Of a stretch of 10,401 nucleotides of DNA, positions 3,009 to 7,918 are shown piece by piece. Under the pieces are notes generated by a model. That model was not told the origin of the DNA, searched no databases, and worked only from the letters and a program-made list of their open reading frames with translations. Every line of letters begins with the position of its first letter. The first letter of the stretch is position 1. The translations under genes were made by a program, and so were the position numbers. Source of the DNA: Eubacteriales bacterium (lineage in GTDB: Bacteria; Bacillota; Clostridia; Peptostreptococcales; Anaerovoracaceae); NCBI GenBank assembly GCA_028691625.1, contig JAQUYZ010000029.1, positions 1 through 10,401 of the forward strand, read 5' to 3'.

Positions 3009-4746
3009 GATTAAGATTGATAATATTGACCTGGTCGTTCCGGAAGGTACCACAATACTGGAAGCGGCAAAAAAGATCAACATCAATATCCCTCATCTCT
3101 GCTATCACCCGGATCAGGCGATCAAAGCGAACTGCAGACTCTGTGTCGTTGAGGTTGCAGGCAGCAAAAAACTGACTCCCTCCTGTTCCTCTTATGTTTT
3201 CGAGGGGATGGAGGTTCAGACAAACACAAAAAAGGTACGTGATATGCAAAAGGGAATCCTCGAATTGATTCTTGCAAATCATGATCAGGATTGTCTGAAA
3301 TGTCTCCGCAACGGGAATTGCGAATTGCAGGCCCTCTGTCAGAGATTTAATATTTCAAAAACAAATCTGGAGGATACCGTTGATGCATTGCCTCTGGACG
3401 ATACGAATCCTTGTCTGGTCAGAGATTCGGCAAAATGTGTGAAATGCAACCGTTGTGTTGATGCGTGCCAGAAGGTTCAGGAGGTTCATGTCCTGACCCA
3501 TTCCCATCGGTCGATTCATTACAACATTACTCCTGCCTATGAAATGCCGCTGGAAGAGACGTTCTGTGTCTTCTGCGGGCAGTGCGCAGCCGTATGTCCT
3601 GTGGGTGCGATTGTAGAAAAGGATGATACTGCCAAGGTTTGGGATGCAATCTACGATACGGGCAAACATGTCATCGTTCAAACAGCTCCTGCAGTAAGAG
3701 TCGCATTGGGAGACGCCTTTAATCTTCCAAAGGGCTCCATTGTTACAGGAAAGATGGTAGCCGCATTGAGGAGACTTGGTTTTGATCAAATTTTCGATAC
3801 CAACTTTACTGCTGACTTAACCATCCTGGAAGAAGGAAACGAACTGATCAAGAGAGTCACCGAAGGCGGCACCCTTCCGATGATCACCTCCTGCTCACCG
3901 GGTTGGATCAACTTTATCGAAGGCCGTTATGACCACCTTCTGGATCACCTTTCCTCCTGCAAATCACCGCAGCAGATGTTTGGAGCTCTCTCCAAATCCT
4001 ATTATGCGGAAAAGACAGGAATCGATCCGAAAAACATCTATACGGTGTCCATCATGCCATGTACCGCAAAGAAGTTTGAGGCTAAGAGGCCGGAAATGGT
4101 TACCAACGGCGTACAGGAGGTTGATGCAGTTTTAACGACCAGAGAGCTGGCACGTATGATTCAGTCTGCCGGCATCGATTTTACCGGCCTGGAGGAGGAC
4201 CAGTTTGACAATCCATTCGGCATCGGAACCGGCGCGGGACAGATTTTCGGCGCAACCGGAGGCGTAATGGAGGCAGCTCTGCGGACCGCTTATGAGGTAA
4301 TCACCGGGAAAGGACTTCCATCCCTGAACTTTACCGAAGTCAGAGGGTTGGAAGGAATCAAGGAGAGCACCGTTCATATCGACGGCCTTGATTTGAAGGT
4401 CGCCGTAGCACACGGACTTGGAAATGCCAAGGTGCTTCTCAAGCAGATCGACAAGGGAGAATCCCCTTACCACTTCATCGAAGTGATGGCTTGCCCGGGC
4501 GGCTGCATCGGCGGCGGCGGACAGCCGATCAAATCCACCATGGATGTCAAGCAAAAACGAATCGATGCCATCTATCATATCGATGAGGACCTCCCACTCA
4601 TGAAATCCCATAAGAATCCGGATGTGATGAGACTTTATGACGAGTATCTTGGTGAACCGCGTGGCCATAAATCCCATGAGCTGCTTCACACCCATTATCA
4701 CTCCCGCGGTATGAAATATAATTTCAGCGAGCTGATGAAGCAGTAA
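2995..4746 (+). CDS. hydA: [FeFe] hydrogenase catalytic subunit, group A, CpI-like architecture (HydA)
   Basis: A 583-residue catalytic subunit for reversible H+ reduction to H2. Domains in order: [2Fe-2S] plant-type ferredoxin (Cys36, 47, 50, 64); His-Cys3 [4Fe-4S] cluster (His96, Cys100, 103, 109); two-[4Fe-4S] ferredoxin domain (Cys148, 151, 154, 158 and Cys191, 194, 197, 201); and the H-cluster domain from about 215. H-cluster motifs: TSCSPGW (298-304), MPCTAKKFE with Cys356, and EVMACPGGCIGGGGQP with Cys500 and Cys504. Numbering runs one ahead of my recollection of Clostridium pasteurianum CpI, and the proton-path residues Glu280, Glu283, Ser320 and Cys300 appear conserved. Ser301 replaces the second Cys of the textbook TSCCP motif, which would be the CpI Cys300 ligand. 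There is no C-terminal extra [2Fe-2S] domain. The start has GGAGGTG at 2981-2987. No maturation genes (hydE, hydF, hydG) are in the window, so they must be elsewhere. Confidence 0.95.
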   Translation: MKNIKIKIDNIDLVVPEGTTILEAAKKININIPHLCYHPDQAIKANCRLCVVEVAGSKKLTPSCSSYVFEGMEVQTNTKKVRDMQKGILELILANHDQDCLKCLRNGNCELQALCQRFNISKTNLEDTVDALPLDDTNPCLVRDSAKCVKCNRCVDACQKVQEVHVLTHSHRSIHYNITPAYEMPLEETFCVFCGQCAAVCPVGAIVEKDDTAKVWDAIYDTGKHVIVQTAPAVRVALGDAFNLPKGSIVTGKMVAALRRLGFDQIFDTNFTADLTILEEGNELIKRVTEGGTLPMITSCSPGWINFIEGRYDHLLDHLSSCKSPQQMFGALSKSYYAEKTGIDPKNIYTVSIMPCTAKKFEAKRPEMVTNGVQEVDAVLTTRELARMIQSAGIDFTGLEEDQFDNPFGIGTGAGQIFGATGGVMEAALRTAYEVITGKGLPSLNFTEVRGLEGIKESTVHIDGLDLKVAVAHGLGNAKVLLKQIDKGESPYHFIEVMACPGGCIGGGGQPIKSTMDVKQKRIDAIYHIDEDLPLMKSHKNPDVMRLYDEYLGEPRGHKSHELLHTHYHSRGMKYNFSELMKQ

Positions 4747-4782
4747 ACAGCATTTTCATGGAAACCGCCGACTTTATGAATG

Positions 4783-4816: not shown

Positions 4817-4846
4817 AAGGTGGGTCGTGTTCGACCCACCTTTTTA
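4817..4846 (+). terminator. Rho-independent terminator of the hydrogenase operon
   Basis: A perfect 9-bp stem, GGTGGGTCG (4819-4827) and CGACCCACC (4832-4840), with a TGTT loop, is followed directly by TTTTT (4841-4845). AA at 4817-4818 can extend the stem using the first two T bases. It lies 70 bases after the hydA stop and separates the hydrogenase operon from malQ. Confidence 0.9.
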
Positions 4847-4920: not shown

Positions 4921-6408
4921 ATGCAAAGAGGCTCTGGGATTTTGATGCATATCAGCTCCCTTCCAAACCAATACGGAATCGGCACCTTCGGAAAGGAAGC
5001 CTATGCCTTTGCCGACTTTTTAGCTGCGGCAAAACAGAAATACTGGCAGCTTCTTCCCCTCTGTCCCACCAGCTTCGGCGATTCCCCTTATCAGTCACCG
5101 TCGGCCTTTGCGCTGAATCCCTACTTTATCGACCTGGAACGGTTGGAGGTGCAGGGTCTGCTGCAATACGATGATTACAGCCAGGTTGATTTTGGCAGTG
5201 ATCCGGATCATGTTGACTATTTCAAGGTTTATGTAAACAAGGAAACAGTTCTTCGAAAAGCCTTTGCGCGAAGGCACCTGCTTCCGTCTCATGGTTTTGA
5301 AGCTTTTATCCAAATGCACCAAAGCTGGTTGGAGGACTATGCCCTCTATATGGCTTTTAAAAATCATTTTGAAAACAAGGCTTGGGAGTTCTGGGATGAG
5401 GAGGTCAAGCAGAGAGTGCCGGAATCTCTTGCATATTATCGAGAGCGCTATCAGGAGGACATCCTTTATTTCCAATTTATACAGTATATCGCCTATGAAC
5501 AATGGAATTCGCTGAAAGACTACAGCAATCGACAGGGGATTGAAATCATCGGAGACATTCCGATCTATGCCTCTGCTGACAGTGCGGATACCTGGAGCAA
5601 TGCCTCCTCCGGAATATTTCAGTATAACAGAGACCTGACGCCCGTCTGCGTCGCAGGCTGTCCTCCCGATTATTTTTCCGGCGACGGACAGTACTGGGGC
5701 AATACCGTTTATGATTGGGATAAGAATAAAGAGACCGGCTATGCCTGGTGGATTCGAAGGATCCAAAATGCATTGAAGAATTACGATTGGGTACGCATTG
5801 ATCATTTCCGCGGATTTGAAAGCTATTGGGAAGTTCCCTATGGGTCTCCCACCGCTGCCCATGGAAGCTGGAAGCCCGGACCGGGTATGGATTTTATCGA
5901 CGCATTGAAAAACACCCTTGGTGATGTCAAGATCATCGCAGAGGATCTGGGCTACATGACAGACAGCGTGAAGGACTTCTTAAAGAATAGCGGCTTTCCC
6001 GGAATGAAGGTTCTCGGTTTCGCCTTTGACGCACTGGGAGACAACGACTATCTTCCCCATAACTATGAAAAGAACTGTGTCGTTTATACGGGAACCCATG
6101 ACAATGATACGGTGCAGGGCTGGTTTGCTCACGCAGGTGAGGAACAGACCGCCTACGCGAAACGATACCTGAAACTGGATGCCACAGAAGGCTATCATTG
6201 GGGCATGATTCGGGGCGCACTGTCTTCTGCTGCCGCGCTGTCCATTATTCCCATGCAGGATTTTCTGGGATTAGGTTCGGAAGCCAGAATGAATACCCCC
6301 GCAACGGTAGGCGGCACCAACTGGCAGTGGAGAATGAAAGAAAATGACGCCTCCCCAGAGCTGGCAGAAAAAATTGCAGAGATGACTCAATTGTATGGGC
6401 GGGAGTAA
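4921..6408 (+). CDS. malQ: 4-alpha-glucanotransferase (amylomaltase), GH77
   Basis: A 495-residue cytoplasmic enzyme that transfers alpha-1,4-glucan segments between maltooligosaccharides, used in maltodextrin or glycogen breakdown. The N-terminus has the GH77 pattern GIGTFGKEAYAFADFL and the donor-site segment GDSPYQSPSAFALNPY. The catalytic residues are in the expected places and numbers: nucleophile Asp294 (RIDHFRGFESYW), acid/base Glu341 (AEDLGYMT) and transition-state stabiliser Asp394 (GTHDNDT), matching Thermus amylomaltase Asp293, Glu340 and Asp395. NTPATVGGTNWQWR closes the barrel. Length is that of the compact bacterial form, without the N-terminal extension of E. coli MalQ. AAGGAG (4908-4913) supports the ATG at 4921. 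It stands alone, without glycogen phosphorylase or sugar transporter genes next to it; only a tiny peptide frame shares its transcript. Confidence 0.97.
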   Translation: MQRGSGILMHISSLPNQYGIGTFGKEAYAFADFLAAAKQKYWQLLPLCPTSFGDSPYQSPSAFALNPYFIDLERLEVQGLLQYDDYSQVDFGSDPDHVDYFKVYVNKETVLRKAFARRHLLPSHGFEAFIQMHQSWLEDYALYMAFKNHFENKAWEFWDEEVKQRVPESLAYYRERYQEDILYFQFIQYIAYEQWNSLKDYSNRQGIEIIGDIPIYASADSADTWSNASSGIFQYNRDLTPVCVAGCPPDYFSGDGQYWGNTVYDWDKNKETGYAWWIRRIQNALKNYDWVRIDHFRGFESYWEVPYGSPTAAHGSWKPGPGMDFIDALKNTLGDVKIIAEDLGYMTDSVKDFLKNSGFPGMKVLGFAFDALGDNDYLPHNYEKNCVVYTGTHDNDTVQGWFAHAGEEQTAYAKRYLKLDATEGYHWGMIRGALSSAAALSIIPMQDFLGLGSEARMNTPATVGGTNWQWRMKENDASPELAEKIAEMTQLYGRE

Positions 6409-6499
6409 CCGTTTGTCTGTTTGTGAATTGTCCGATTTGGAATTGGATATGGTAGCCGGCGGAAAGGATTGTGTCAACATAGATGCTACTTATAAATAA
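6395..6499 (+). CDS. Candidate small peptide with double-glycine leader (bacteriocin- or signal-like)
   Basis: A 34-residue frame overlapping the last 14 bases of malQ in another frame and ending just before the shared terminator. It contains LSDLELDMVAGG (residues 12-23 from the ATG), which fits the double-glycine leader consensus LSxxELxxIxGG at every defined position, allowing Val for Ile at -4. Peptides with such leaders are cut after GG and exported by C39-peptidase ABC transporters (PCAT). The predicted cargo is only 11 residues, KDCVNIDATYK, with one Cys. Two starts are possible: ATG 6395 (GAGATGA at 6379-6385, nine bases ahead) or TTG 6413 (GGGAG at 6401-6405, seven bases ahead, giving 28 residues and coupling to the malQ stop). 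No transporter or modification enzyme is in the window. It could be a genuine peptide gene, a remnant of one, or coincidence; the motif match and position favour the first two. Confidence 0.5.
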   Translation: MGGSNRLSVCELSDLELDMVAGGKDCVNIDATYK

Positions 6500-6501
6500 A
6501 C

Positions 6502-6543
6502 AAATCCCATCGCCGGCCTATGCCTCTGATGGGATTTTTTTTT
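6502..6543. terminator. Terminator between malQ/peptide frame and dacF, probably bidirectional
   Basis: AAATCCCATC (6502-6511) and GATGGGATTT (6528-6537) form a 10-bp perfect stem; inside the loop GGC (6515-6517) can pair with GCC (6522-6524). On the plus strand nine T bases (6535-6543) follow the stem, making a strong terminator for malQ and the small peptide frame. Read on the minus strand the stem is followed by the T-rich TTTGTTTATTTAT, so it can also end the serC-apgM-dacF transcript, whose last stop codon is at 6572. Confidence 0.85.
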
Positions 6544-6571: not shown

Positions 6572-7918
6572 TTAACGCCAATATTCATTGTACCTTTGCT
6601 GATCGCCTTGGCTCATATAACGATTTGCCCTCTCCATGCGTCTCAGCTTTCTTCTTCGTATCTGTCTTCTCTTTAATACCACATAGGCCGCAAACAGCAG
6701 CACAATGAGGATCAAGATTACAGCAAAGGATCTTTCGATCACCTTTGCTGTCTCATCGGACAGTCCGATGATAGATAAAATACCGCCTTCCGGGATGTCG
6801 CTTGCGGTCACCGCATCTACTGTTCCGACCAACCTGTCGCCTTCATAAATCTCAACAACGCCGACCTTCTGCCCCTTCGCGATCGGTGCGCGAACCTTAT
6901 TATCCAATATAATCTTTGTATTCACCACAGCATCCGAAGCTTCAATGGGAAGTGTCGCATAGGCGTTGCCCAATGCCACCACCTGTACTTTGCGTTCGGT
7001 ACCACGCTTGACAGGGATTTCTCCCAGGATCGTTCCGGCACTCATGGCTTTTACACTTTTATAATTTTCAAAGGCATAATCCAATAATGCAATTGAGTCT
7101 GCAAAACGGCCCTCGTCAGTGGATTTCATGACAACTGCGATCAGTTCCGTCTCTCCGCGAATGGCTCCTGCAATGAGGCAGCCTCCCGCATGACTGGTAT
7201 ACCCTGTTTTGATTCCTGTGGCTCCCTCATATTTTGCAGCCCGCTGTATACCATTGACGAGCACCTTTGTTTTTTCATCATAGATCAAACGATTGGTATT
7301 ATATAAGTAACGAGTTTCCTGCATGTTGGTTGCGGGAATCACATGCCGGTAGGTGGTCACAAATTCTCTGAATTTTTCATTCTTCATTGCCTCTTTGGCA
7401 ATCATGACCAAATCGTAGGCTGTTGACACATGGCCTTCCTCGTGCAGACCGTTGGGATTGATAAAGTTTGTATTTTCTGCCCCAAGCTCCTTTGCCCTTT
7501 TGTTCATCATCCCGGCAAAGTCAGGCACGGTACCTGCAATCACTTTTCCCAGTGCAACCGCCGCGTCGTTGGCCGATTCCAGGAGCAAGGCGTACATGAG
7601 CTGTTCTACTGTGACATTTTCCCCTTCCAGAAGATAAACCCGGCTGCCTTCTGTGAAGGGAGTCTCCGCATCAATGGTGACGAGCTGTTTCAGGTCGAGG
7701 TTTTCAAGTGTCAGAAGCGCAGTGATCACCTTCGTGGTACTCGCCGGTTCTCTTTGCTCCTTCATGTTCTTATCATACAGCACCTGCCCGGTTTTTGCGT
7801 CGATCACAACAGCTGTCTCGGCTAAAATTGCCGGTGGTTCTGTTGTTCCGAAAGATACGAGCGGAGCTGCATTTATAATAAGCAATACTGTTACTATGAT
7901 TGAAACTATTCTTTTCAT
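6572..7918 (-). CDS. dacF: D-alanyl-D-alanine carboxypeptidase, DacF/PBP5 family
   Basis: A 448-residue penicillin-binding protein (peptidase S11) that trims the terminal D-Ala from peptidoglycan stem peptides outside the membrane. A signal peptide is visible at residues 1 to about 24 (MKRIVSIIVTVLLIINAAPL). The three active-site motifs are intact: SxxK at Ser60-Lys63 (PASTTK), SxN at Ser115-Asn117 (ESANDA) and KTG at 237-239 (GIKTGYTSHAGG). The PBP5 C-terminal beta domain follows (about 300-380). The C-terminus has a real hydrophobic membrane segment (about 398-415) and a 33-residue, very Arg-rich cytoplasmic tail, not just the amphipathic anchor of E. coli PBP5. The gene starts 15 bases after the apgM stop; the ribosome binding site (GGGGA, 7927-7923) is weak and close, so translation may depend on coupling. 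The dacF symbol rests on family similarity; dacA- or dacB-type naming is possible. Confidence 0.92.
   Translation of the reverse strand: MKRIVSIIVTVLLIINAAPLVSFGTTEPPAILAETAVVIDAKTGQVLYDKNMKEQREPASTTKVITALLTLENLDLKQLVTIDAETPFTEGSRVYLLEGENVTVEQLMYALLLESANDAAVALGKVIAGTVPDFAGMMNKRAKELGAENTNFINPNGLHEEGHVSTAYDLVMIAKEAMKNEKFREFVTTYRHVIPATNMQETRYLYNTNRLIYDEKTKVLVNGIQRAAKYEGATGIKTGYTSHAGGCLIAGAIRGETELIAVVMKSTDEGRFADSIALLDYAFENYKSVKAMSAGTILGEIPVKRGTERKVQVVALGNAYATLPIEASDAVVNTKIILDNKVRAPIAKGQKVGVVEIYEGDRLVGTVDAVTASDIPEGGILSIIGLSDETAKVIERSFAVILILIVLLFAAYVVLKRRQIRRRKLRRMERANRYMSQGDQQRYNEYWR

What the first reader, a model, noticed from the sequence alone, without database searches (positions are those of the whole stretch)
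6395..6499. Unannotated double-glycine leader peptide tucked between malQ and its terminator
The frame reads LSDLELDMVAGG and then an 11-residue cargo with one Cys. All defined positions of the double-glycine leader consensus LSxxELxxIxGG are satisfied (L-12, S-11, E-8, L-7, V-4, G-2, G-1). Such leaders direct cleavage and export by C39-peptidase ABC transporters and mark bacteriocins, some RiPP precursors and quorum-sensing peptides. The frame has plausible starts (ATG 6395, TTG 6413 with GGGAG), stops just before a strong terminator and would be co-transcribed with malQ. A cargo this short, beside a glucanotransferase and without a local transporter, is unusual: it could be a signalling peptide or an orphan precursor matured in trans.
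Basis: partly seen in the sequence, partly recalled or inferred. Interest (0 to 1): 0.8.

Follow-up and report, generated by a model that had tools for sequence, protein, structure and literature searches.

The report
Orphan stub of a peptide-export leader
Just after a starch-metabolism gene sits a tiny reading frame carrying the cleavage tag that this genome's own peptide-export system should read, but without the usual large leader domain and seen in one genome only, so it may be a leftover or a very small secreted peptide.

Summary
Window 6395-6499 encodes MGGSNRLSVCELSDLELDMVAGG plus KDCVNIDATYK. The motif is not chance: 36.5 bits on a profile of 20 same-genus Nif11 leader ends, at most 14.8 in 772,667 control positions. 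It matches the leader ends of this genome's own Nif11 lanthipeptide precursors (LSDxELDMVAGGK). Other contigs carry LanM, an NHLM HlyD and a C39 transporter whose peptidase is 61% identical to LahT. A published study found 13 C-terminal leader residues enough for LahT cleavage, about what this ORF keeps.

The ORF has no Nif11 domain and an 11-residue cargo, and was found in no other genome examined. The closest relative held, G003, has the same gene order with an acetyltransferase gene in this slot; no Nif11 precursor or C39 peptidase was detected there.

I read it as a stripped-down end of a Nif11 precursor, still legible to the resident transporter. Relic (0.50) and working micro-precursor (0.38) cannot be separated with one genome. 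Signalling is not excluded; nothing here shows it.

The parts
4921..6408 (+). malQ, 4-alpha-glucanotransferase, upstream gene
   Evidence: 495-aa ORF; PF02446 593 bits, TIGR00217 386.9 bits; 88% identical to its counterpart in L062, the G003 record
6401..6405 (+). GGGAG Shine-Dalgarno-like site inside the last malQ codons
   Evidence: duplex -6.9 kcal/mol for TTG 6413; G003 has GGGGG at the same place ahead of the ATG of its acetyltransferase gene
6395..6499 (+). mini-ORF, longest form (ATG start), 34 codons plus stop
6413..6499 (+). mini-ORF, favoured form (TTG start): 17-residue leader and 11-residue cargo
   Evidence: start-site strength; the start is not shown by experiment
6425..6463 (+). 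13-residue Nif11-type leader end ELSDLELDMVAGG (C39 recognition motif)
   Evidence: minimal motif length from PMC6363468
6464..6496 (+). 11-residue cargo KDCVNIDATYK
6502..6537 (+). terminator hairpin, followed by a T run
   Evidence: the region aligns with the same place in G003
6572..7918 (-). convergent D-alanyl-D-alanine carboxypeptidase gene, marks synteny with G003
   Evidence: PF00768 200.7 bits

Best explanation
The ORF is the detached C-terminal end of a Nif11-type RiPP leader with a short core. It was left between malQ and its terminator when most of a Nif11 precursor gene was lost, or when a fragment of one was inserted. It keeps about the 13 residues that a LahT-like C39 peptidase needs. 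If ribosomes re-initiate on the malQ message at TTG 6413, the product could be cut after GG and the 11-mer exported in trans by the genome's NHLM transporter. It lacks the Nif11 domain that the intact precursors of the genus carry, so modification by the resident LanM is unlikely. I judge a relic without selected function slightly more likely than a working gene. Shown: sequence, homology of the motif, resident machinery, absence in the relatives examined. Inferred: origin by truncation, translation, cleavage, export, lack of function.
For: Motif shared with own-genome Nif11 precursors GLLSDAELDMVAGGK and GALSESELDMVAGGK; profile test; 10 of 13 residues equal the published Nif11 motif ELSDEELEAVAGG (PMC2887384, passage). 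Compared with seven same-genus leaders that have Lys at +1, 8-13 of 39 nt differ, mostly synonymously (3-8 synonymous, 1-2 nonsynonymous codons of 13), so none of the seven looks like a recent parent. In sister species G005 one Nif11 precursor is broken just after GG and another leader frame is N-terminally incomplete, so decay of such genes happens in the genus. The ORF is seen in one genome only, and G003 has another gene in the slot. Among seven ELDMVAGG leader frames, four have 82 residues counted from the first Met and one 85; the two shorter ones (27 and 50) are the damaged G005 frames.
Against: A random truncation need not leave a frame joined to a good ribosome site, with the motif undamaged and a stop just before the terminator. 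No trace of a Nif11 domain or of an earlier full gene was seen at this place in the relatives examined. No parent gene identified (the assembly is 74% complete).
Confidence: 0.5

Rival explanations
1. A working micro-precursor: a leader reduced to the bare protease-recognition tag, translationally coupled to malQ, whose 11-residue product is cleaved and exported in trans by the NHLM transporter, unmodified, perhaps as a signal tied to sugar use.
For: Complete anatomy: ribosome site and start, intact motif, stop before terminator. The resident C39 peptidase is 61% identical (83 of 135) to LahT, PDB 6mpz; LahT150 cleaved a synthetic peptide with only 13 leader residues plus 4 (PMC6363468, section 8). 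Another precursor of this genome (C282) lies on a 6.5-kb contig where I recognised by eye no NHLM or LanM gene among ORFs of 80 aa or more (it sits near the contig end, so its far side is unseen). By eye, the homology stops about where the minimal motif begins.
Against: No conservation found; the cargo is shorter than in the 19 same-genus rows that remain after leaving out one cut by a contig end and one broken by a frameshift (17 residues or more); weak TTG start; no receptor or regulator known; nothing links malQ with peptide export. C39 peptidases are common (8 of 14 control genomes; 4 of 9 genomes of the genus), so having one is weak evidence by itself.
Confidence: 0.38
2. Chance resemblance in an untranslated stretch after malQ.
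For: Only one genome; an 8-residue core of the motif also turns up inside unrelated or tiny frames (18 of 38 matches in 349 genomes, my reading).
Confidence: 0.05
3. Assembly artefact of a fragmented genome: a short leader sequence wrongly joined in.
For: 435 contigs, 74% complete; repeated leader motifs can mislead assemblers.
Against: Both flanks and the terminator region keep the gene order of G003; among 11 loci compared, the best leader DNA match is only 84% identical over 37 nt, so no collapsed copy is apparent.
Confidence: 0.04

Closest known systems
Nif11-leader RiPP precursors (TIGR03798) of NHLM lanthipeptide clusters
   Same: C-terminal leader motif, including Lys at +1 and the genus' LSDxELDMVAGG form
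   Different: no Nif11 domain, 17-23 instead of usually 82 leader residues, 11-residue core, on another contig than the cluster
LahA/LahT system of Lachnospiraceae bacterium C6A11 (PMC6363468)
   Same: resident C39 domain 61% identical; the 13-residue motif is about the published minimum
   Different: LahA precursors carry Nif11-type leaders and are encoded in the same cluster as LahT
Short double-glycine leaders of class II bacteriocins (TIGR01847 type) and pneumococcal GG peptides
   Same: short leader ending like LSxxELxxVxGG
   Different: cargo much shorter than the 41-residue suffix tabulated for TIGR01847 in PMC2887384; no local transporter; no NCBIfam hit above cut-off and no Pfam hit

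Membership tests
Nif11-leader RiPP precursor (TIGR03798) | C-terminal motif like ELSDEELEAVAGG | tested here: met
   10 of 13 residues identical (motif from PMC2887384); profile score 36.5 bits
Nif11-leader RiPP precursor (TIGR03798) | Nif11 leader domain, score above the model's cut-off | tested here: not met
   no TIGR03798 hit for the ORF at E 0.001; the two G001 precursors tested beside it score 38.8 and 42.4 bits, cut-off 32.3
Nif11-leader RiPP precursor (TIGR03798) | beside NHLM transport or modification genes | tested here: not met
   none recognised among the ORFs of the 10.4-kb window; the machinery lies on C110 and C328
Nif11-leader RiPP precursor (TIGR03798) | core with modifiable Cys, Ser or Thr | tested here: inconclusive
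   one Cys and one Thr; many cores of G005 have no Cys
Substrate of a LahT-like C39 (AMS/PCAT) transporter | L-12, L-7, V-4 and GG within the last 13 leader residues | tested here: met
Substrate of a LahT-like C39 (AMS/PCAT) transporter | such a transporter in the genome | tested here: met
   C110: PF03412 129.9 bits; TIGR03796 423.1 bits over positions 2-285 of 710, below its cut-off of 853.3 because the contig ends there; 61% identity to 6mpz
Substrate of a LahT-like C39 (AMS/PCAT) transporter | cleavage and export observed | not testable with these tools
   needs biochemistry
CTB family bacteriocin (NF038167) | score above the curated cut-off | tested here: not met
   22.5 bits, cut-off 32; positions 2-25 of the 72-position model align

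The most novel reading that the evidence does not exclude
A RiPP leader has been pared down to the bare C39 protease tag and placed behind a sugar-metabolism gene, so that the lanthipeptide transporter exports in trans a short unmodified peptide reporting on maltodextrin use.
Probability: 0.2. Interest if true: 0.65.

Novelty: new variant of a known kind. Interest (0 to 1): 0.36.

Why it matters
If functional, it would show that an NHLM/PCAT transporter can serve dispersed tag-only substrates, so that searches relying on the Nif11 domain or on clustering miss secreted peptides. If a relic, it shows how such tags can arise and persist. Either way it is a natural near-minimal substrate for testing what these transporters require.

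Tried and rejected
One weak match, in a 23-residue frame of L074, is probably chance. No counterpart.

Was the leader piece present in the untranslated region of G003? The alignment of the 5' part is no better than shuffles (418 of 2,000 reach it), so rejected; only the terminator region aligns.

Mobile origin: no match in viral contigs (an E-L/F-DMVAGGK pattern), plasmids or phages. RNA element: no Rfam match in the window at gathering thresholds.

Is the G003 acetyltransferase elsewhere in this genome? No match at E 1e-10 in G000; matches in G003 itself, G008 and G004, 3 of 13 genomes searched. This did not settle which state is ancestral.

Pneumococcal papers PMC7595303 and PMC9426450 were seen in passages only, for short GG peptides; nothing decisive was taken from them. 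PHROGs and PADLOC were not searched.

Full report
The observation. Window 6395-6499 reads MGGSNRLSVCELSDLELDMVAGGKDCVNIDATYK and stops. malQ (PF02446; TIGR00217) ends at 6408. The best start is TTG 6413, seven bases after GGGAG, with a duplex energy of -6.9 kcal/mol. Of seven larger window genes tested, six score between -5.0 and -12.2 and one (TTG 1114, start uncertain) +1.9; ATG 6395 scores -2.9. The stop is followed by a hairpin at 6502-6537 of -18.5 kcal/mol with a T run. Rfam has no match in the window. The ORF has no Pfam hit.

Not chance. The profile was made from 20 distinct leader ends of Nif11 precursors from three same-genus genomes (22 ends, two duplicates dropped, the window left out, one end taken from a frameshifted copy). 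It gives the window 36.5 bits. The best of 772,667 open control positions from 80 malQ loci scores 14.8, and the fitted expectation is about 0.002 per genome. An 8-residue core pattern has 38 matches in 27 of 349 family genomes, against 3 for the reversed control. By my reading and of the fetched contigs, 20 of the 38 are leader-type frames (the window included) and 18 lie in unrelated or tiny frames; none of the 18 has Leu or Met at -12 followed by Ser or Thr.

What the motif is. The genome has five matches to TIGR03798, on contigs C328 (three, one of them at 27.9 bits below the cut-off of 32.3), C434 and C282; two end LSDAELDMVAGGK and LSESELDMVAGGK. C328 also encodes a LanM of 1,061 residues (TIGR03897 649.9 bits, cut-off 304) between precursors. 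C110 encodes the NHLM HlyD protein (TIGR03794) and the start of the C39 transporter (TIGR03796, cut off by the contig end, so below its cut-off). G001 has HlyD, both transporters, two precursors and LanM in one cluster. C110 ends inside the first transporter and C328 begins with what looks like the end of the second, so I infer that they are two pieces of the same kind of cluster. The resident C39 domain is 61% identical (83 of 135) to LahT, PDB 6mpz. C39 peptidases as such are common: 8 of 14 control genomes and 4 of 9 genomes of the genus.

Why it could still work. In PMC6363468 (section 8 read; other passages) LahT150 cleaved a synthetic 17-mer with only 13 leader residues, and changes at L-12, L-7 and V-4 harmed cleavage. 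The window keeps ELSDLELDMVAGG, 10 of 13 residues equal to the Nif11 motif of PMC2887384 (passages). So cleavage and export in trans are plausible; neither is shown.

Why it may be a relic. It has no Nif11 domain. Among the seven ELDMVAGG leader frames, four have 82 residues counted from the first Met and one 85; the two shorter (27 and 50) belong to damaged G005 genes. Its cargo of 11 is shorter than in the 19 rows that remain when one truncated by a contig end and one frameshifted are left out (17 or more). It follows malQ in none of 9 loci read and 80 scanned. A search with the peptide over 41 genomes at E up to 1 finds, besides itself, seven precursor leader ends and one weak match in G030. 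The closest relative held, G003, keeps the gene order but has a 164-residue GNAT acetyltransferase gene (PF00583) in this slot, with a homologous terminator region. It has no Nif11 match and no C39 match, though its genome is listed as 89% complete. In G005 a Nif11 precursor is broken just after GG. Against a relic: an intact motif, a good ribosome site and a clean stop. The DNA differs from seven same-genus leaders at 8-13 of 39 positions, mostly synonymously, so none of these is a recent parent; the assembly is only 74% complete, so a parent may be missing.

Verdict. Real and homologous to Nif11 leaders: about 0.9. Relic 0.50, working micro-precursor 0.38, chance 0.05, artefact 0.04. With one genome these cannot be separated further. 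It is a new variant of a known kind, of modest interest unless translation is shown. The literature check was three searches (15 of 168, 15 of 202 and 10 of 25 papers listed); the listings showed no tag-only Nif11 precursor, which is no proof that none is in print.

Noticed in passing
L057 (G000:C282) 5865-6173: A Nif11-type precursor on a 6.5-kb contig with no NHLM or LanM gene recognised by eye, near a rifampin ADP-ribosyltransferase gene (4288-4764; NF033144 211.9 bits).
   Followed up: partly
L056 (G000:C434) 1135-1407: A Nif11-type precursor beside a B12-binding radical SAM protein gene (PF04055 and PF02310); the ORF on its other side looks alike but was not searched.
   Followed up: partly
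L058 (G005:C73): Many Nif11 precursors, all listed cores without Cys and several rich in Ala, Ser and Val; one is broken by a frameshift just after GG and one leader frame is N-terminally incomplete. No C39 peptidase match in that genome.
   Followed up: partly
L061 (G007:C250) 547-798: A short-leader GG peptide (25 leader residues) near a DDE transposase gene (PF13751), of a different kind from the Nif11 precursors.
   Followed up: partly
L016 3491-3985: In G003 a GNAT gene sits in the place of the mini-ORF; homologues elsewhere in G004 and G008, none found in the window's genome at E 1e-10.
   Followed up: partly
window 4817-4842: A strong hairpin with a T run between the hydrogenase-like gene (name by eye) and malQ, so malQ and the mini-ORF are probably their own transcript.
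   Followed up: no
L014 and L015 (G001:C47): In G001 malQ lies on the same contig as the NHLM lanthipeptide cluster, roughly 20 kb away.
   Followed up: no
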